Origin: Halosimplex litoreum
GTDB lineage: Archaea; Halobacteriota; Halobacteria; Halobacteriales; Haloarculaceae
Length of the DNA stretch: 64,000 nt
Assembly: GCF_016065055.1 (NCBI RefSeq)
Contig: NZ_CP065856.1
Coordinates: 3,347,836-3,411,835 of the forward strand
Reading direction: 5' to 3'
Below are positions 11,936 through 56,767 of this stretch, in pieces. The first letter of the stretch is position 1. Every line of letters starts with the position of its first letter. Position numbers and translations under genes: made by a program. The notes below the pieces were generated by a model that worked only from the letters and a program-made list of their open reading frames with translations, was not told the origin of the DNA and did no database searches.

Positions 11936-12463
11936 ATGACGAGAGGGTCGTCCCGGCTGGTCGGCGACGAGCGCGGCGGGGTCGAGCGATGGGTCGTCTG
12001 GCTGGTCGCGCTCGCCGTCGTTGGCGGGCTCGTCGGCTCGGTGGTCTACCTCGACGACGAACTCCGCCGGGACAGCCCCGGCGCCGACTTCTCCGTGTCG
12101 TTCGATTCGCAGACGGGAACGATGACCGTCGAACACGCCGGCGGCGACCCGATCGTCGACCGGACGACCGAACGGCTCTCCCTCGTCGTCCTCGACGGCT
12201 CGACCGGGACGACCGAGGAGGTCGTCTGGGTGAGCGATGCACCCGGCGCGACCAAGCGCGGGGTGGGGTATCCGGTCCGGCCCGGCGACTCGCTGACGAT
12301 CGACGACCCGCGCGTCGACAGCGACGGCGACGGGAGCTACCTCGACGCCGAGCGCAGCGTGGGGGTCTACCTGGAGTCCGGCGATTCGGTGCGGGTCGTC
12401 TGGACCGGGTCGATGCGCGGGACGACCCAGACCGTGACGCTCGCCAACGCGACGCTGGCGTGA
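11936..12463 (+). CDS. Type IV pilin-like membrane-anchored secreted protein
   Basis: A 175-residue protein beginning MTRGSSRLVGDERGGVERW, then one hydrophobic helix (about residues 20-40) and an extracellular beta-rich domain. The charge-then-helix N-terminus and the C-terminal pattern (DGDGSYLDAE, SGDSVRVVWTG, ending TVTLANATLA) resemble archaeal adhesion-pilin-like proteins with a DUF1628-type fold. The canonical class III prepilin cleavage motif is not clear, so it may be a pseudopilin or simply a membrane-anchored protein. A CCTAACTA box lies about 30 bases upstream. Repeat element A follows it. Confidence 0.55.
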   Translation: MTRGSSRLVGDERGGVERWVVWLVALAVVGGLVGSVVYLDDELRRDSPGADFSVSFDSQTGTMTVEHAGGDPIVDRTTERLSLVVLDGSTGTTEEVVWVSDAPGATKRGVGYPVRPGDSLTIDDPRVDSDGDGSYLDAERSVGVYLESGDSVRVVWTGSMRGTTQTVTLANATLA

Positions 12464-12507
12464 TTCGGTTGCGTTCTCCGAGTGGACGAACGTGCGAGAG
12501 ACAACGA

Positions 12508-12815
12508 CTGATGAAAGCCCTCGACCCGCTCGCGGTCGCTGCGCGCCATATCCGCGCTCTCCGCACCGCCCGCGCGAATAGGGGTCGCGCAGACGACTGA
12601 ACTGCACGCGAGCAGGGCGGTCGGCGGAGCCGACCGCCGCAAGCCGTGGCGGCTTCGCCGCCACGCGCGCCTCGCCCGTTCAGTCCACCAGGCGACCCGC
12701 ACAGCGCCATACCACACACCTCCCCAGCCGATTCGCTCACTGTGTTCGCTCATCCCTCGCGCGGCTACGGTCGCGCGCACGAGAGCGCGCGACAGCGCGC
12801 GCCGTCCGGACGTTT
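12508..12815 (+). repeat. Dispersed modular hairpin element, copy A
   Basis: This fills the gap between two convergent genes and is one of three related copies (others near 43320-43860 and 56458-56740). Conserved blocks: head at about 12513-12568 (GAAAGCCCTCG... then CCGCTCGCGGTCGCTG and ATATCCGCGCTCTCCGCACC), middle at 12670-12692 (CTCGCCCGTTCAGTCCACCA), tail at 12718-12770 (CCTCCCCAGC ... GCTCATCCCTCGCGCGGCTA). Between head and middle sit two perfect hairpins: 12616-12638 (arm GGCGGTCGGC, loop GGA) and 12646-12664 (arm GTGGCGGC, loop TTC). The head begins with a short frame (MKALDPLAVAARHIR), but it is not kept in the other copies, so I treat the element as non-coding. Confidence 0.8.
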
Positions 12816-12832
12816 CACCGTTCTCGACCGCT

Positions 12833-14029
12833 TCAGACCCCTTTCCGCATCAGGTGGCTGCGGAGCACGTCGTTCTCCTTGGACCCCGCGACGGGGTTGA
12901 CGAGCACGACGACGTCGTCGCCCCCGAGGTGGCCGCCGTCGGCCAGTTCCTGGGCCGCCGCGGCGCCGACGCCGCCGGTGGCGCTGACCTCGATGCCTTC
13001 CTCGTTCAGCTGAACTGCGGCTTCGAGCGCGTCGTCGTCGCTGGCGCCGACGGCCCAGCCGCCGGTGTCCCGGACGGCGTCGAGCGCGAGCGCGCCGCCG
13101 GCCGGGTCGGGGACCTCCAGCGAACCGATCAGCGTATCGGGCCGCTCCCAGAGTTCGGTGTCGTCCGCCCCCTCGTCGTCGGCAGCGACGACGGGCGCAC
13201 AGTGTTCGGGCTGGCCGACGTGGAGCGCGGGCGACTCCTCGACGAGGCCCGCCGCCTGCAGTTGCTCGGCGGCGAGGTGGCTGCCGACGACGCCGAGGCC
13301 GTGGCCGGTCGGGTGGACGACGGCGTCGGGGACCGCCCAGTCGAGCTGCTCGACGACCTCGAACAACAGCGTCTTGGCACCTTCGTGGCGGTAGGGAGTG
13401 TCGAAGGGCGCCAGCGAGTGCCAGTCGGCGTCGTCGTCGTCGGCCATCGCGGACTCGAAGGCGTCGACGGCGTCGGGGTAGCGCCCCTCGACGACGCTCA
13501 TGTCGCCGCCGTGGACGTTGGTCATCGCCTTGGCGACGAACGTCGAGCGCGTCGGAACGAACGCCTCCGAGTCGAGGCCGGTGCGGGCGGCGTAGGCGGC
13601 GGCGCTCTGGCCGGCGTCGCCCGTCGTCGGGAGCGCGACCTCCTCGGCGCCGTGGTCGCGCGCGGCGGTCACGGCGAGGGCGGTCCCCCGGTCGGCGGTC
13701 GTGCCGGTCGGGTTCGCACCCTCGTCTTTGAGGTAGACGGCCCCGACGCCCAGCTCGTCGGCGAACTCGGGTGCGGCGACCAGCGGTGTCGTCCCCTCGT
13801 CGAGCGTCGCGAGGGCGTCGCCGGGGAACGGGAGCAGGTCGGCGAAACGGGCGATCCCGTCGAAGCGCTCGTCGGCGAGCGACTCGCGGGTCACGTCGAC
13901 GGTTGCGTGGTCGTAGCTCGCGCGGAGGACGCCCTCGCAGTCCGGGCACCGGCGCGGGGCGGTCGCGGGGTCGTGGGTCGCCGCGCAGTCGACGCAGACG
14001 AGGCCGTCGAGCGACGTGGTCGTATCCAT
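12833..14029 (-). CDS. Threonine synthase-like fold-type II PLP protein lacking the catalytic lysine
   Basis: A 398-residue protein with an N-terminal zinc ribbon (CVDC, CPDC within residues 1-32) followed by a fold-type II PLP domain resembling threonine synthase: EGTTPLV, YLKDEGANPTGT, TGDAGQSAAAYAA and a C-terminal ATGGVGAAAAQELA. In true threonine synthases the NPTGS is followed by FKDRG, whose Lys forms the Schiff base with PLP. Here the sequence reads NPTGTTADRG, so Ala112 replaces that Lys; the DNA at 13698-13720 confirms it. Conversion of O-phosphohomoserine to threonine by the normal mechanism is therefore unlikely. It may be a degenerate paralogue, a regulatory protein or an enzyme with different chemistry. 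Confidence 0.75.
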   Translation of the reverse strand: MDTTTSLDGLVCVDCAATHDPATAPRRCPDCEGVLRASYDHATVDVTRESLADERFDGIARFADLLPFPGDALATLDEGTTPLVAAPEFADELGVGAVYLKDEGANPTGTTADRGTALAVTAARDHGAEEVALPTTGDAGQSAAAYAARTGLDSEAFVPTRSTFVAKAMTNVHGGDMSVVEGRYPDAVDAFESAMADDDDADWHSLAPFDTPYRHEGAKTLLFEVVEQLDWAVPDAVVHPTGHGLGVVGSHLAAEQLQAAGLVEESPALHVGQPEHCAPVVAADDEGADDTELWERPDTLIGSLEVPDPAGGALALDAVRDTGGWAVGASDDDALEAAVQLNEEGIEVSATGGVGAAAAQELADGGHLGGDDVVVLVNPVAGSKENDVLRSHLMRKGV

Positions 14030-18932: not shown

Positions 18933-20096
<1,164 letters not shown>

Positions 20097-20388
20097 CGGT
20101 TCGACCGCCGGCGTCGTCGCGAGTGAGCGTCGGCGGCGGCGGGGCAGTGATGGCGTTGCTGTCGCGGTAGCGGTTCGACCGCCGGCGTCGTCGCGAGTGA
20201 GCGTCGGCGGCGGCGGGGCAGTGATGGCGTTGCTGTCGCGGTAGCGGTTCGACCGCCGGCGTCGTCGCGAGTGAGCGTCGGCGGCGGCGGGGCAGTGATG
20301 GCGTTGCTGTCGCGGTAGCGTGGTGGTGTCGCGGTAGCGGTTCACCGCCGGCGGAATCTCTTTGTCGCCGACGGCTGTCGGTTCGACC

Positions 20389-43193: not shown

Positions 43194-43319
43194 GGCTTCA
43201 CGCCCGGGTTTGGTACACCGTGACAAGTATCTTCTGCCTGTACCAACACTGGCCGGTCCAGCGCTCTCCCGCGTTCGGTGCAGCGGAAGGCTATCGCGGA
43301 TGCGGTTGGCGGTGCTGTC

Positions 43320-43860
43320 GGCGCGTGCTGTCGAGCGGTGCGAGGGCGACTGGAAGGAGCCCCCGATGCGAGCGGGGAGCGAAGCGACCCGCGAGCGTGC
43401 CCGCCTCTTGGCGGACCGCTCGAAATAGCCGCGCGAGGGATGAGCGACGACAGGAGTGAATCAGCTGGGGAGGCTCGTGGCCGTCTGCGGTTGCTGTGTG
43501 GTGGCGGTGCTGTCCCTGGTGTCCGCGCGACAGCGTTCGCGCGGGGTCGGGAGAGCTTGCTCTCCCGGTGGACTGAACGGGCGAGACGCGCGTGGCGGCG
43601 TAGCCGCCACGGACTGTGGCGGTCGGCGGAGCCGACCGCCCGCTCGCGCTTGTGTAGTCGCCTGAGCGGGCACTATCCGCGCGGTGCGAGGCGCGCAGCG
43701 CCTCGAAGCGAATAGCGTGGGAGCGAAGCTCCCACGGACCGTGCGAGCGGGCCAGTGGCCCGCGAGCAGACGGCCCTGCCGTGAGCGGGCGGTGTCGGGA
43801 GCGCGGATATCCCGTCTCAGCGACCGCGAGCGGGTCGAGGTCGTTCGACGCCTGCTGTCT
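43320..43860 (-). repeat. Dispersed modular hairpin element, copy B (reverse orientation, longest)
   Basis: It fills most of the 807-base gap between the DUF7331-like gene and polB, which are divergent. Read on the minus strand it has the same block order as copies A and C: head (43795-43845, ATATCCCG/CGCTCGCGGTCGCTGAG region), middle (43566-43590, CGCGTCTCGCCCGTTCAGTC) and tail (43425-43475, GCTCATCCCTCGCGCGGCTA). Extra hairpins are inserted between blocks: 43717-43735 (arm GTGGGAGC), 43687-43705 (arm CGAGGCG), 43617-43639 (arm GGCGGTCGGC), 43591-43609 (arm GTGGCGGC), 43549-43566 (arm GGGAGAGC) and 43524-43543. Short frames through it are not conserved between copies. It seems non-coding. 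Confidence 0.8.
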
Positions 43861-43963
43861 CCGTCGAGTGCGGTCGCGGCTGTTCGAGTTCAGTCCGCGA
43901 CTCGTCCGCCAGAACAACTCCTCGACTCGCACCCGAATCTCTCGCTCCTGATCCCCGATACCG

Positions 43964-44000: not shown

Positions 44001-47000
44001 ATGGAGCAAACGGAGTTCGGGGACTTCGGGGCCGGAGCGGATCGGCCCGCCGACGAGGCCGAGGCCGTCGCCGGGAACGACACCGGCGGCGAGGTCGCGA
44101 CAGTCGTCGACGCCGACTCGGCACGGTTCCCCGACGCCCAGGGCACGGTCACGCTGACCGTCACACAGGTTGACTACACCGTCGAGTACAGCGGTGACGA
44201 CGAGTTCCCAGTCGTCCACGTCTTCGGCCGTCGAGAGCCAGGCCCGGACGACGATCACCCGCCCCTCGAACACGTCGAGGTGTACGACTTCGAGCCGTAC
44301 TTCTACGCGCCCATCGAGAACGTCGACGACCAGCGCATCGCGGGGTACGACGGCCTCGTCGACTACCGCGAGACCGACGAGCAGGGCGAACCGTTCGAGT
44401 CCATCCGCGGCGACCGCCTCGCGAAGATCGTCGGCCGCACGCCCCGCGACGTGGGGCAGATCCGCGACGACTTCGAGCACTACGAGGCGGACATCCTCTT
44501 CCCCAATCGCCTGCTCATCGACAAGGACATCGAGAGCGGCGTCCGCGTGCCCGAACGGCGCACCGACGACGGCACCATCCGCGTCCCTCATCAGGAGGTC
44601 GAGGCCGTCGACGACAACGCCACGCCGCGGGTCAACACCTTCGACATCGAGGTCGACGACCGCAACGGCTTCCCCGAGGACGGCGAGCAGACCATCGTCT
44701 GTCTCACCTCCCACGACTCCTACGACGACAAGTACATCAACTGGCTCTACGAGTCGCCCGACGGCGTCGACGGGCCCGCCGCGCTGGGGGCGTACGACCC
44801 GATCGAGGCCGATATCGACGCCGAGGTTCGCGTCTTCGACTCCGAACCGGAGATGCTCGACGCGTTCATCGAGTACATCGAGGAGACCGACCCGGACCTG
44901 CTCACTGGCTGGAACTTCGCCGACTTCGACGCGCCCTATTTCCTCGACCGCGTCGAGGAACTGGCGGGGCCGAACCACGACTACGACCTCGACATCGACC
45001 GACTCTCCCGGGTAAACGAGGTGTGGCGCTCGGACTGGAACGGCCCGGACATCAAGGGCCGGGTCGTCTTCGACCTCCTGCGGGCGTACAAGAGCACGCA
45101 GTTCACCGAACTGGAGTCCTACCGCCTGGACGCCGTCGGCGAGATGGAACTCGACGTGGGCAAGGAGCGCTACCCCGGCGACATCGGCGACCTCTGGGAG
45201 GACGACCCCGAGCGCCTGCTGGAGTACAACCTCCGGGACGTGGAGCTGTGCGTCGAACTGGACCGCAAGCAGGACATCATCGCCTTCTGGGACGAGGCGC
45301 GCAAGCTCGTGGGCTGTAAGATCGAGGACGCCCCCACCGCCGGCGACGCCGTCGACATGTACGTCCTCCACAAGGCCTACGGCGAGTTCGCGCTCCCCTC
45401 GAAGGGCCAACAGGAGGCCACCGACGAGTTCGAGGGCGGCGCCGTCTTCGACCCGATCACCGGGGTCCGCGAGAACGTCTCGGTGCTGGACCTCAAATCG
45501 CTCTACCCGATGTCGATGACGACCATCAACGCCTCGCCGGAGACGAAGGTCGACCCCGAGACCTACGGCGGCGAGACCTACCACACGCCCAGCGGCGTCC
45601 ACTTCCGGAAGGAACCGGACGGCATCATCCGGGAGATGGTCGACGAACTCCTCGAAGAACGGGAGGAGAAGAAGTCCCTGCGAAACGACAACGCCCCCGG
45701 ATCTGAGGACTACGAACGCTACGACCGGCAGCAGGCCGCGGTGAAGGTGATCATGAACTGCTTCACGCCGGACACCGACGTGCTCACACCGGACGGCGTC
45801 CGCAACATCCGGGACCTCGACGTGGGAGACTCCGTCTACTCGCTGGACCCGGAGACGATGGAGATGGAGGTCAAGCCGGTCGTCGAGACGCACGCCTATC
45901 CCGACTACCGGGGCGAACTCGTCGACGTCGAGACGAGCAAGACGGACTTCCGCGTGACGCCGAACCACCGGATGCTCGTCCGGAAGAACGAGCGAAACGG
46001 GATCTCCTGGGATCAGGACGACTACCGGTTCGTCGAGGCCGGCGACCTCGATCGGGCGACGAACTACGAACTCCCGCACGGCTGGGACGGCCCGGACGGT
46101 GAGCGGATCGACGAGGTCGACTTGACCGAACTACTCGACGACTACGAGGTGTGGGTGCGTCCGGAGGTCCACGGCCACACGTTCGCCGCCGAGATCGGAT
46201 ACTACCCCGACAAAGTGCTCAAAAACGACGTCGGGCAGGAGGGGTACGTCTTCTCCGCCGAGGAGTTCGAGGCCCACAGGGAGTACATCGACAGCGTCGC
46301 CGAACGATGCTTCGTCCACGCCGAAGCGAACAGGAAGTGGATCCCGAGAACCTACGGCGGTGACGACTTCCTCGAACTGCTGGCCTGGTTCGTCACCGAG
46401 GGGAACGTCTACACGTCCGAAGAGAAGCAGTTCGGCGACAACCTTCGTGGGTCCGCGACTACGGTCAAGATCGCACAGGACGCTCCCGTGGCGACCGACG
46501 GAGGCGAAGGCGGCGCGGCTGCCATCGAAGACGATCACCACGCCGCCATCGGCGATCTGCTCGACAGGATGGGCTTCGACTACTACGTCGACGACCAGTC
46601 CTACCAGTTCACGTCGCGGCTCCTCGGTCGGTATCTCGAAGACGCCTGCGGTGACGACAGCTTCGCCAAGCGGGTCCCGGAGTTCGTGTTCGATGCATCA
46701 CGCGAACAGAAGCGACGGTTCCTGGACGTGTTGCTCGACGGCGACGGTGACCGTCAAGAGAACTCCTGGCGGTATTCGACGGCCAGCGAGGAACTGCGCG
46801 ACGACGTGCTCCGTCTGTGCGCCCATCTCGGCCTCACCGCGAATTACCGGAAAGACAGCGGCAGCTGGCGGATCTACGCCACCGAGAACGCGAAGAACAC
46901 GCTCCGGATGCACCGCAGCGGCTCGCGCAGCGAGGCCGAAGACGGCGTCTACTGCGTCACGGTCGAAGACAACCACACGCTGATGGCGGGCCGCAACGGG

Positions 47001-47990
47001 AAGTTCCAGTTCGTCGGCCAGTCGCTCTACGGCGTCTTCGGCTGGGACCGCTTCCGCCTCTACGACCGGGAAATGAGTGCCGGCGTCACCTCCACGAACC
47101 GGGAGGTCATCAGCTTCACCGAGCAGGCGGCGAACGAACTTGACAAAGAAGTTATATATGGAGATACTGACAGTGTCATGCTCGAACTCGGCGGAGAGAC
47201 GCCGAAAGAGGAGGCTATCGAGCGCTCGTTCGAGATAGAGGATCACATCAACGACCGCTACGACGAGTTCGCGATCGAGGAGCTCAACGCCGAGCTCCAC
47301 CGCTTCCAGATCGAGTTCGAGAAGCTCTATCGGCGCTTCTTCCAGGCGGGCAAGAAGAAACGGTACGCCGGGCACATCATCTGGAGCGAGGGGAAAGACG
47401 TCGACGACATCGATATCACGGGCTTCGAGTACCAGCGCTCGGACATCGCGCCGATCACGAAGGAAGTCCAGCTGCAGGTCATCGAGATGATCGTCCACGG
47501 GGAAGACCTCGAGGACGTGAAAGACTACGTTCACGACGTCATCGAGGACTTCCAGAACGGCGAGGCCAGCCTCGACGACATCGGGATCCCCGGCGGTATC
47601 GGGAAGAAGCTCGACAACTACGACACCGACACCGCGCAGGTCCGCGGCGCGAAGTACGCCAACCTCCTGCTGGACACCAACTTCGCGAGCGGGTCGAAGC
47701 CCAAGCGGGTCTACCTGAAGAAGGTCCACCCCGAGTTCTTCCGGGAGATCGAAGCCGAGATGGATCTCGACCCCGCGGAGGACCCGCTGTACGGCGAGTT
47801 CAAGCGTGACCCGGACGTGATCTGCTTCGAGTACGCCGACCAGGTACCCGACGCCTTCGAGGTCGACTGGGACAAGATGCTCGACAAGACGCTGAAAGGC
47901 CCCATCGCCCGCGTTCTCGAAGCGCTCGACATCTCCTGGGAGGAGGTCAAAAGCGGCCAAGAGCAGACGGGCCTCGAGAGTTTCATGTGA
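44001..47990 (+). CDS. polB: Family B DNA polymerase with an intein at motif B
   Basis: A 1329-residue precursor; removing the 421-residue intein (587-1007) leaves about 908 residues, normal for archaeal PolB. The proofreading domain has Exo I FDIEVD near residue 215. Polymerase motif A is LDLKSLYP (Asp497), motif B is split by the intein (KVIMN / SLYGVFGW) and motif C is YGDTDS (Asp1055 and Asp1057). It is the replicative or repair B-type polymerase of the cell. Codons 47139-47174, exactly over YGDTDS, are AT-rich and unlike the rest of the gene (see findings). The gene follows repeat element B and its own TATA box. Confidence 0.97.
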   Translation: MEQTEFGDFGAGADRPADEAEAVAGNDTGGEVATVVDADSARFPDAQGTVTLTVTQVDYTVEYSGDDEFPVVHVFGRREPGPDDDHPPLEHVEVYDFEPYFYAPIENVDDQRIAGYDGLVDYRETDEQGEPFESIRGDRLAKIVGRTPRDVGQIRDDFEHYEADILFPNRLLIDKDIESGVRVPERRTDDGTIRVPHQEVEAVDDNATPRVNTFDIEVDDRNGFPEDGEQTIVCLTSHDSYDDKYINWLYESPDGVDGPAALGAYDPIEADIDAEVRVFDSEPEMLDAFIEYIEETDPDLLTGWNFADFDAPYFLDRVEELAGPNHDYDLDIDRLSRVNEVWRSDWNGPDIKGRVVFDLLRAYKSTQFTELESYRLDAVGEMELDVGKERYPGDIGDLWEDDPERLLEYNLRDVELCVELDRKQDIIAFWDEARKLVGCKIEDAPTAGDAVDMYVLHKAYGEFALPSKGQQEATDEFEGGAVFDPITGVRENVSVLDLKSLYPMSMTTINASPETKVDPETYGGETYHTPSGVHFRKEPDGIIREMVDELLEEREEKKSLRNDNAPGSEDYERYDRQQAAVKVIMNCFTPDTDVLTPDGVRNIRDLDVGDSVYSLDPETMEMEVKPVVETHAYPDYRGELVDVETSKTDFRVTPNHRMLVRKNERNGISWDQDDYRFVEAGDLDRATNYELPHGWDGPDGERIDEVDLTELLDDYEVWVRPEVHGHTFAAEIGYYPDKVLKNDVGQEGYVFSAEEFEAHREYIDSVAERCFVHAEANRKWIPRTYGGDDFLELLAWFVTEGNVYTSEEKQFGDNLRGSATTVKIAQDAPVATDGGEGGAAAIEDDHHAAIGDLLDRMGFDYYVDDQSYQFTSRLLGRYLEDACGDDSFAKRVPEFVFDASREQKRRFLDVLLDGDGDRQENSWRYSTASEELRDDVLRLCAHLGLTANYRKDSGSWRIYATENAKNTLRMHRSGSRSEAEDGVYCVTVEDNHTLMAGRNGKFQFVGQSLYGVFGWDRFRLYDREMSAGVTSTNREVISFTEQAANELDKEVIYGDTDSVMLELGGETPKEEAIERSFEIEDHINDRYDEFAIEELNAELHRFQIEFEKLYRRFFQAGKKKRYAGHIIWSEGKDVDDIDITGFEYQRSDIAPITKEVQLQVIEMIVHGEDLEDVKDYVHDVIEDFQNGEASLDDIGIPGGIGKKLDNYDTDTAQVRGAKYANLLLDTNFASGSKPKRVYLKKVHPEFFREIEAEMDLDPAEDPLYGEFKRDPDVICFEYADQVPDAFEVDWDKMLDKTLKGPIARVLEALDISWEEVKSGQEQTGLESFM
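45759..47021 (+). mobile_element. PolB intein (421 residues) with LAGLIDADG-type endonuclease
   Basis: Inserted between Asn586 and the Ser that starts SLYG of motif B. The N-terminal splice residue is Cys587 (CFTPDTDVLTPDG, block A). Block B is VTPNHRMLV with the TxxH pattern. Endonuclease motifs are LLAWFVTEG and LLDGDGD, both with acidic residues kept, so the homing enzyme may be active. Block F is VYCVTVEDNHTLMAGRNG. The C-terminus is FVGQ followed by extein Ser: Gln replaces the usual Asn and Gly the usual penultimate His. Gln-ending inteins can still splice, more slowly. The boundary codons look like the host gene. Confidence 0.93.
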
Positions 47991-54877: not shown

Positions 54878-54996
54878 AGTCCCGTGGTGTAGTGGCCAAT
54901 CATATGGGCCTTTGGAGCGACACGGCGTACGCGACCCATTCATACGCCGTGTTGCGGAGCGAGCCTATGACAGCGGTTCGAATCCGCTCGGGACTA
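54878..54996 (+). tRNA. tRNA-Gln(UUG) with a 46-nt intron
   Basis: The acceptor arms AGTCCCG (54878-54884) and CGGGACT (54989-54995) pair perfectly, and the T arm is AGCGG-TTCGAAT-CCGCT. The anticodon loop CTTTGGA places TTG at 54912-54914 (Gln). The sequence is broken after position 37 by an intron, 54916-54961, which folds into a long hairpin (arms ACACGGCGTA/TACGCCGTGT). Removing it gives a normal 73-nt tRNA with anticodon stem TGGGC/GCCTA. Haloarchaea such as Haloferax are known to carry introns in tRNA-Trp, elongator Met and Gln. I could not fully resolve the bulge-helix-bulge. Confidence 0.93.
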
Positions 54997-56107: not shown

Positions 56108-56223
56108 CGTCTCCCACCTCCCGCCCGCGGTCCTTGAGTCTCCCGGCATCGGACCGCCCCTCGATGTCCCTTCTCGGAGCTGTTCGCGGCGAGTTGGAGT
56201 AGTCGCACGCGGCAACGAGCGCC

Positions 56224-56473
56224 GAAAAGCCCTCAGCGCGCTCGCTAGCTGTCGATTTTACCGCACTCGACGGTGGGTGTTGAAAGCCCTCGCCGCGCTC
56301 GCTAGCTGTCGATTTTACCGCACTCGACGGTGGGTGCTGAAAGCCCTCGCCGCGCTCGCTAGCTGTCGATTTTACCGCACTCGACGGTGGGTGCTGAAAG
56401 CCCTCGCCGCGCTCGCTAGCTGTCGATTTTACCGCACTCGACGGTGGGTGCTGAAAGCCCTCGCCGCGCTCGC
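56224..56473 (+). repeat. 57-bp tandem array (four units plus partial fifth), one CTAG per unit
   Basis: Units start at 56224, 56281, 56338 and 56395, with a fifth beginning at 56452 that passes into element C. Each unit is GAAAGCCCTCGCCGCGCTCG + CTAGC + TGTCGATTTTACC + GCACTCGACGGTGGGTGC. The first 22 bases of the unit equal the head of the dispersed element; the other 35 are specific to this place. CTAG sits at 56245, 56302, 56359 and 56416. On the minus strand each unit offers GGTAAAATCG, a TATA-like box pointing towards the methyltransferase, with CTAG about 12 bases after it. No unique spacers, so not CRISPR. The whole 56108-56767 gap holds this array, element C and nothing else I can name. 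Confidence 0.92.
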
Positions 56474-56740
56474 GGTCGCTGAGACGGGATATCCGCGCTC
56501 TCCGCACGGCCCGCGCGGATAGTGGCCCGCTCAGACGACCACGCGAACGCGAGCGCGTCTCGCCCTTTCAGTCCGCCAGGACCGCCCCGCACAGCACCGC
56601 AGACGGCCTCGTGCCTCCCCAGCCTCTTGCGCTCCGCGCGCCTGCGGCGTGCGGTGCTCATCCCTCGCGCGGCTAGTTCGAGCGGCCCGCCACGAGGCGG
56701 GCACGCTCGACAGCACGCGCCACCGCGACTGTTCCGTACT
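56458..56740 (+). repeat. Dispersed modular hairpin element, copy C
   Basis: Same block order and orientation as copy A: head 56457-56525 (CGCTCGCGGTCGCTGAGACG, GATATCCGCGCTCTCCGCAC), middle 56558-56582 (CTCGCCCTTTCAGTCCGCCA), tail 56611-56673 (GCCTCCCCAGCC ... GCTCATCCCTCGCGCGGCTA) and an end that matches copy B closely (GCCCGCCACGAGGCGGGCAC, then GCTCGACAGCACGCGCC). Fewer inserted hairpins than A or B, so it is the most compact copy. It lies between the 57-bp array and the stop of the GNAT gene. Confidence 0.8.
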
Positions 56741-56767
56741 GGCTCGATCCGAACGCTGACGACCCGA

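What the first reader, a model, noticed from the sequence alone, without database searches (positions are those of the whole stretch)
12508..12815. Copy A of a dispersed, hairpin-rich element that occurs three times in the window
Seen: copies at 12508-12815, 43320-43860 (reversed) and 56458-56740 share head, middle and tail blocks in one order, separated by variable perfect hairpins. The hairpin with arm GGCGGTCGGC occurs in A and B but in opposite orientation relative to the element, so hairpins seem to be inserted or inverted modules. The settings differ: convergent gap (A), divergent gap (B), tandem gap (C), which argues against a simple terminator. Short frames in the blocks are not preserved. 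It could be a structured RNA, a non-autonomous mobile element or a chromosome-organising site.
Basis: partly seen in the sequence, partly recalled or inferred. Interest (0 to 1): 0.75.

Follow-up and report, generated by a model that had tools for sequence, protein, structure and literature searches.

The report
Haloarchaeal hairpin-mosaic dispersed repeat family
The three look-alike stretches are members of a non-coding DNA repeat present in about 60 copies in this Halosimplex genome and in many other salt-loving archaea; the copies hold their places and keep their hairpins while their letters are swapped between copies, much like a large archaeal version of bacterial REP/BIME repeats.

Summary
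A, B and C belong to a family of ~62 intergenic copies in the window's genome (a Halosimplex), with relatives across Halobacteriales (tail pattern in 108/293 genomes, 37/87 genera, reversed-pattern control 0). The element is a mosaic of separable modules: head units with 57-bp period; a long hairpin H (P1/P2); a conserved tail core with a variable terminal hairpin; and in 24 of 99 copies an independent element II. In Halorussus, H occurs alone in at least 43 copies per genome. H arms co-vary massively, almost only as Watson-Crick swaps (169 double against 4 one-sided changes), which fits DNA hairpins better than RNA. Sites are shared between species always in the same orientation (21 same, 0 opposite), yet the element at a shared site is no closer to its counterpart than to random copies: vertical inheritance plus ectopic conversion. 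Near-identical pairs with sharp ends show copying to new sites, without target duplications, inverted repeats or a linked transposase. Best reading: an archaeal REP/BIME-like non-autonomous mosaic repeat. A structured RNA is less likely but not excluded; transcription could not be tested. No Rfam family or paper found.

The parts
12464..12820 (+). Copy A, whole element; fills the gap between two convergent genes (11936-12463 + and 12833-14029 -)
   Evidence: the same site is occupied in G001-G005 and decayed in G006
12510..12692 (+). Copy A, hairpin module H (P1/P2) with two inserted hairpins
   Evidence: cmsearch R1 hit at 12510-12633, 83.7 bits; P1 3' strand CTCGCCCGTTCAGTCC read to 12692
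12616..12638 (.). Inserted perfect palindrome GGCGGTCGGC-GGA-GCCGACCGCC
   Evidence: loop census
12719..12764 (+). Copy A, conserved tail core CCTCCCCAGCC...CTCATCCCTCGCGCGG
12769..12803 (+). Copy A, terminal hairpin ending ACAGCGCGCGCC
43270..43950 (-). Copy B, whole element in a divergent gap; left end TTCGGGTGCGAGTCGAGGAG at about 43950
   Evidence: replaced by about 45 bp in G004 and G005
43567..43849 (-). Copy B, module H with nested hairpins inserted in the P2 loop and in P1
43429..43473 (-). Copy B, tail core
43325..43428 (-). Copy B, enlarged terminal hairpin region
56184..56750 (+). Copy C, whole element
   Evidence: occupied in G003, absent in G004, decayed in G006 and G007
56226..56473 (+). 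Tandem array, period 57 bp, 4.4 copies, each unit carrying the head block GAAAGCCCTCGCCGCGCTCGC
   Evidence: period 57 in 80 of 94 neighbouring head-unit pairs over 99 copies
56450..56580 (+). Copy C, module H (P1/P2), compact form
   Evidence: cmsearch R1 138.2 bits
56614..56672 (+). Copy C, tail core
56680..56722 (+). Copy C, terminal hairpin GAGCGGCCCGCC-ACGA-GGCGGGCACGCTC and ACAGCACGCGCC

Best explanation
A haloarchaeal, non-coding, non-autonomous mosaic repeat built from separable hairpin modules, working like a large archaeal counterpart of bacterial REP/BIME repeats. SHOWN: copies lie between genes; modules combine in fixed order but also occur alone; some copies were recently copied to new places with common ends; many sites and orientations are inherited between species while the sequence at a site is replaced by that of other copies; paired arms change together almost only as Watson-Crick pairs. 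INFERRED: a trans-acting activity that recognises the hairpins, not identified, seeds new copies at intergenic sites; ectopic gene conversion (gene conversion is known to be very active in a polyploid haloarchaeon) then overwrites resident copies with modules from sister copies; the hairpins are kept as DNA structures, by recognition or by hairpin-templated correction, rather than as RNA. Any benefit to the host is unproven.
For: About 62 copies on both strands. None of 99 Halosimplex and none of 40 other copies overlaps a gene. Near-identical pairs in unrelated flanks with sharp ends: 98% over 485 bp, 94% over 508 bp, 94% over 568 bp. 21 shared-site pairs between G000 and H. pelagicum in the same orientation and 0 opposite, 10 of them with both flanks. 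At the 10 two-flank sites the best paralog in the same genome always outscores the orthologous element, whose rank among 49 H. pelagicum copies is 3 to 42, mean about 21. Empty or decayed sites for A, B and C. Element II occurs 41 times, partly fused to element I. Covariation: 21 and 22 pairs with double changes, double-change counts above all 500 shuffles, wobble nearly absent. Very efficient gene conversion is documented in Haloferax volcanii (PMC8223754).
Against: No mobilising enzyme was found: the single Y1 transposase gene in the genome lies 21 kb from the nearest copy and shares no end sequence. No new insertion was caught at strain level. Same-site turnover could also come from conversion by DNA acquired from relatives. 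The lack of wobble partly reflects a few haplotype blocks inherited by many copies.
Confidence: 0.55

Rival explanations
1. A family of structured non-coding RNAs, or cis-regulatory RNA segments, expressed from many intergenic sites; the hairpins are RNA helices.
For: Very strong covariation with conserved unpaired positions; the complementary strand carries GNA triloops (40 TNC against 9 GNA loops in element orientation) and strings of tandem G.A-compatible pairs, which suit a folded strand.
Against: Among non-Watson-Crick cells in well-paired columns G.T is not in excess over A.C: 27 against 39 in Halosimplex and named loci, 3 against 8 in the mainly Halorussus set, while haloarchaeal tRNAs give 11 against 0 (ARAGORN favours wobble, so this control is biased). 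No Rfam match. Folding z-scores are alike on both strands. No fixed gene context.
Confidence: 0.17
2. A PATE-like element: a degenerate IS200/IS605 relative mobilised in trans by a Y1 (HUH) transposase acting on single-stranded hairpins.
For: No inverted ends and no target duplication at three recent copy pairs, hairpins near the ends, strand-specific loops; PATEs are numerous in Haloquadratum (PMC3119063).
Against: The genome's IS605 locus shares no end sequence with the elements. The elements are far more complex and far more divergent than homogeneous PATEs.
Confidence: 0.13
3. A chromosome-organising or nucleoid-protein site, comparable to the protein-binding roles proposed for BIMEs.
For: Many copies, intergenic, conserved places and orientation between species; the 57-bp period is kept across copies with unrelated spacers.
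Against: Spacing CV 1.07 against 0.98 for random placement; strand runs 27 against 32 expected; copy number differs widely within one genus (0 to 57 tail patterns in Halorussus).
Confidence: 0.1
4. Transcription punctuation: bidirectional terminators or mRNA 3' ends.
For: Many copies sit tens of bp from stop codons; element II has T-runs on both sides and abuts stop codons and a tRNA 3' end.
Against: Element I lacks T-runs, occurs in convergent, tandem and divergent gaps alike (25, 45 and 14), and in Halorussus often in divergent gaps.
Confidence: 0.05

Closest known systems
REP sequences and BIMEs of bacteria, mobilised by RAYT transposases (PMC2817692)
   Same: High-copy, extragenic, palindromic, mosaic assemblies of modules; proposed there to be non-autonomous elements, with protein binding and termination roles suggested
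   Different: Much larger (300-800 bp), with tandem head units; archaeal; no RAYT; whole hairpins replaced while pairing is kept
PATEs and SMRs of Haloquadratum walsbyi (PMC3119063)
   Same: Transposase-free mobile repeats of haloarchaea without target duplications; repeats inserted in other repeats
   Different: PATEs resemble IS605 ends and SMRs have inverted ends; neither was found here. No direct sequence comparison with them was made
MITEs
   Same: Short, non-coding, dispersed, intergenic
   Different: No inverted ends, no target duplication and no parent transposon found
Deletion-coupled insertions and switched repeats of Haloquadratum (PMC3119063)
   Same: Different repeats found at an identical position in two genomes
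   Different: Here the replaced sequence is a member of the same family in the same orientation, between species, at many sites

Membership tests
REP/BIME | High-copy extragenic palindromic units | tested here: met
REP/BIME | Composite mosaics of units that also occur singly | tested here: met
   H alone in Halorussus; element II alone or fused
REP/BIME | A RAYT (Y1) gene flanked by two inverted copies | tested here: not met
   single Y1 gene in the genome, no copy within its locus
REP/BIME | GTAG-type tetranucleotide at the foot of each hairpin | not tested
   not examined
MITE | Terminal inverted repeats | tested here: not met
   ends of three recent copy pairs
MITE | Target-site duplication | tested here: not met
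   longest shared word at the ends 0-2 nt in six copies
MITE | Parent transposon with the same ends | tested here: inconclusive
   only the Y1/IS605 locus was examined
PATE (IS200/IS605-derived) | No inverted ends and no target duplication | tested here: met
PATE (IS200/IS605-derived) | Near-terminal palindromes related to IS605 ends | tested here: not met
   no significant match between the genome's IS605 locus and the copies; other IS605 elements not examined
Structured non-coding RNA | Compensatory base changes | tested here: met
Structured non-coding RNA | Wobble pairs tolerated in helices | tested here: not met
   with tRNA control
Structured non-coding RNA | Match to a described RNA family | tested here: not met
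Structured non-coding RNA | Transcribed | not testable with these tools
   no RNA-seq available

The most novel reading that the evidence does not exclude
A Halobacteriales-wide class of DNA hairpin elements whose arms are kept complementary at the DNA level, by a hairpin-templated correction process or a hairpin-reading mobiliser not yet described, so that compensatory change proceeds without wobble intermediates while the positions stay fixed through speciation and the sequences circulate between copies.
Probability: 0.28. Interest if true: 0.75.

Novelty: new variant of a known kind. Interest (0 to 1): 0.6.

Why it matters
Strong covariation is normally read as proof of an RNA. This family shows very strong compensatory change with almost no wobble, in an element that looks like a mobile DNA repeat, so it is a test case for telling DNA-hairpin from RNA selection and a warning for covariation-based RNA discovery. 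It is also a ready natural system to study ectopic gene conversion in archaea: 21 shared-site pairs whose contents have been exchanged. And it suggests that archaea have their own REP/BIME-like systems, with a mobilising enzyme still to be found.

Tried and rejected
Rfam at curated and relaxed thresholds: nothing convincing. Viral contigs and phage records: no match, so no viral carrier was found. The one non-haloarchaeal hit (L160, a Chloroflexi MAG) appears to lie in coding sequence, without the element's other blocks, and was judged chance. Choosing the functional strand by folding energy failed: the complementary strand folds better in raw energy, but z-scores are alike, so that is composition. 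Regular spacing or strand polarity: not found. Preference for convergent gaps: weak in Halosimplex and absent in Halorussus. Y1 transposase as neighbour: rejected for this genome. Element II as an obligate part of the element: rejected, since it occurs alone and is missing from A, B and C. Literature searches for a described haloarchaeal repeat of this kind found only the Haloquadratum PATE/MITE/SMR work; subscription papers and ISfinder could not be searched.

Full report
WHAT IS THERE. The three copies were read directly and share the blocks in the order described. The window lies at 3,347,836-3,411,835 of a 4,158,049-bp, single-contig genome. The genus is Halosimplex: G003 and G005 of the same genus contain contigs with the exact lengths of the H. 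pelagicum R2 and H. aquaticum chromosomes. The tail 16-mer occurs 43 times exactly with no reversed-control match. Copy A gives 95 blastn pieces. Merging these lists and requiring the tail core gives 58 copies, or 62 with a few that lack a strict tail.

ANATOMY. Extra hairpins are inserted in the P2 loop, in the P1 3' strand, in the spacer, among the head units and in the terminal hairpin. In 24 of 99 copies from two species a further structured part follows, with TTTTTCACCCATGTTTTTG and, where complete, AAAAAGATGG at its end. That part is a separate family, element II, with 41 places in the genome, many without element I. A, B and C carry no element II.

MODULES ARE SEPARABLE. A covariance model of H (R1) finds it in 21 of 79 Halobacteriales genomes and 13 of 38 genera, with at least 43 matches (a reporting cap) in three genomes of one genus. 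That genus is Halorussus: the second contig of G104 has the length of the H. salilacus plasmid found. Only 2 of 40 fetched H copies, most of them from Halorussus, have a tail within 450 bp, so H is an element of its own there. Conversely the full tail pattern occurs in 108 of 293 genomes and 37 of 87 genera, control 0, and varies from 0 to 57 copies between species of one genus. Records with the tail include Natrinema, Natronococcus, Haladaptatus, Halococcus, Halogranum and Haloarcula.

STRUCTURE TEST. On 32 hand-picked copies, 91.8% of cells pair, 21 of 36 pairs show double changes, and 0 of 500 shuffles reach the observed values. On 40 other H copies, mostly from Halorussus, 94.8% pair, 22 pairs have double changes and 169 cells have double against 4 one-sided changes. 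That alignment was fitted to the model, which favours the structure, but the pairing does not survive sliding by 1-3 columns. Cells count sequences, not events, and two common stem haplotypes (GCGGGAT..GCCCGC and GCGACAT..GGTCGC) account for part of the double changes. In well-paired columns the non-Watson-Crick cells are G.T 27, A.C 39, other 40, and G.T 3, A.C 8, other 6. An RNA helix should tolerate G.U far more than A.C; ten tRNAs from the same loci give 11 to 0, a control biased by the tRNA finder. Neither strand shows the expected RNA signature. The complementary strand carries the GNA triloops (40 to 9), and its tail segment can be read as alternating Watson-Crick and tandem G.A pairs (for example GAT-GA-GC-GA-AC-GGA-GT-GA-GC-GA-ATC); that reading is mine from inspection and was not tested statistically.

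EVOLUTION. Site A is occupied in five other Halosimplex genomes by elements with different hairpins and is decayed in G006; site B is replaced by about 45 bp in G004 and G005; site C is occupied in G003, absent in G004 and decayed in G006 and G007. Between G000 and G003 there are 21 copy pairs with shared flanks, 10 with both flanks, all in the same orientation and none opposite. A few single-flank pairs may reflect paralogous flanks. Random reinsertion would give about half opposite. The element at a shared site is not preferentially similar to its counterpart: at the 10 two-flank sites its rank among the 49 H. pelagicum copies is 3 to 42 (mean about 21), and the best paralog in G000 always scores higher. 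Sites are therefore inherited and contents exchanged. Very efficient gene conversion with long tracts has been measured in Haloferax volcanii, there between chromosome copies (PMC8223754); ectopic conversion between dispersed copies is my inference. New copies also arise: three pairs of copies are 94-98% identical over 485-568 bp and lose similarity abruptly at common ends (TGC... on the left; GTACTGAGC or similar, or AAAAAGATGG when element II is attached, on the right), without inverted ends or target duplication.

PLACEMENT. None of 99 Halosimplex copies and none of 40 other copies overlaps a predicted gene; the gene finder was a codon-usage model trained on the window. All gap types are used. 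Spacing and strand order are near random.

INTERPRETATION. Best supported is a non-autonomous, hairpin-based mosaic repeat that works like REP/BIME systems. It cannot be filed as REP/BIME in the strict sense, because no RAYT-type gene is associated in this genome, nor as a MITE, because inverted ends and target duplications were tested and not found. The mobiliser and any host function remain unknown. RNA function is disfavoured but not excluded, because transcription could not be examined. Novelty is judged against Rfam 15 and the open-access literature only.

Noticed in passing
G000 genome-wide, e.g. L299-L328; not in A, B or C: Element II, a separate repeat family (TTTTTCACCCATGTTTTTG core, three hairpins, T-runs facing both ways, ending AAAAAGATGG), 41 places in the genome, often abutting stop codons and once a tRNA 3' end; looks like a repeat that could terminate transcription both ways.
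   Followed up: partly
window 44001-47990: Family B DNA polymerase gene with Hint and LAGLIDADG domains, i.e. an intein with a homing endonuclease, directly beside copy B.
   Followed up: no
window 20050-20320: 74-bp tandem repeat, 3.7 copies, 99% identical, starting in the end of a gene, unrelated to the element.
   Followed up: no
window 54878-54996: tRNA gene of 119 bp, long enough to hold an intron.
   Followed up: no
L123 1925-2138, L169 4834-5018: In Natrinema two tail cores face away from each other; in L123 they surround a CCACGATAGCAG inverted repeat, suggesting another composite with a different head.
   Followed up: no
G104 contig 2 (Halorussus salilacus plasmid, 342 kb): The elements also sit on a haloarchaeal megaplasmid, without annotation.
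   Followed up: no
head-unit arrays, e.g. window 56226-56473: The 57-bp period is kept across copies with unrelated spacers, close to the roughly 60-bp DNA length of an archaeal histone particle (from memory, not tested).
   Followed up: no
L329 (G000:C1 51280-51627): Only Y1 (IS200-type) transposase gene found in the genome, lying between two TnpB-like genes; its surroundings do not resemble the element.
   Followed up: yes
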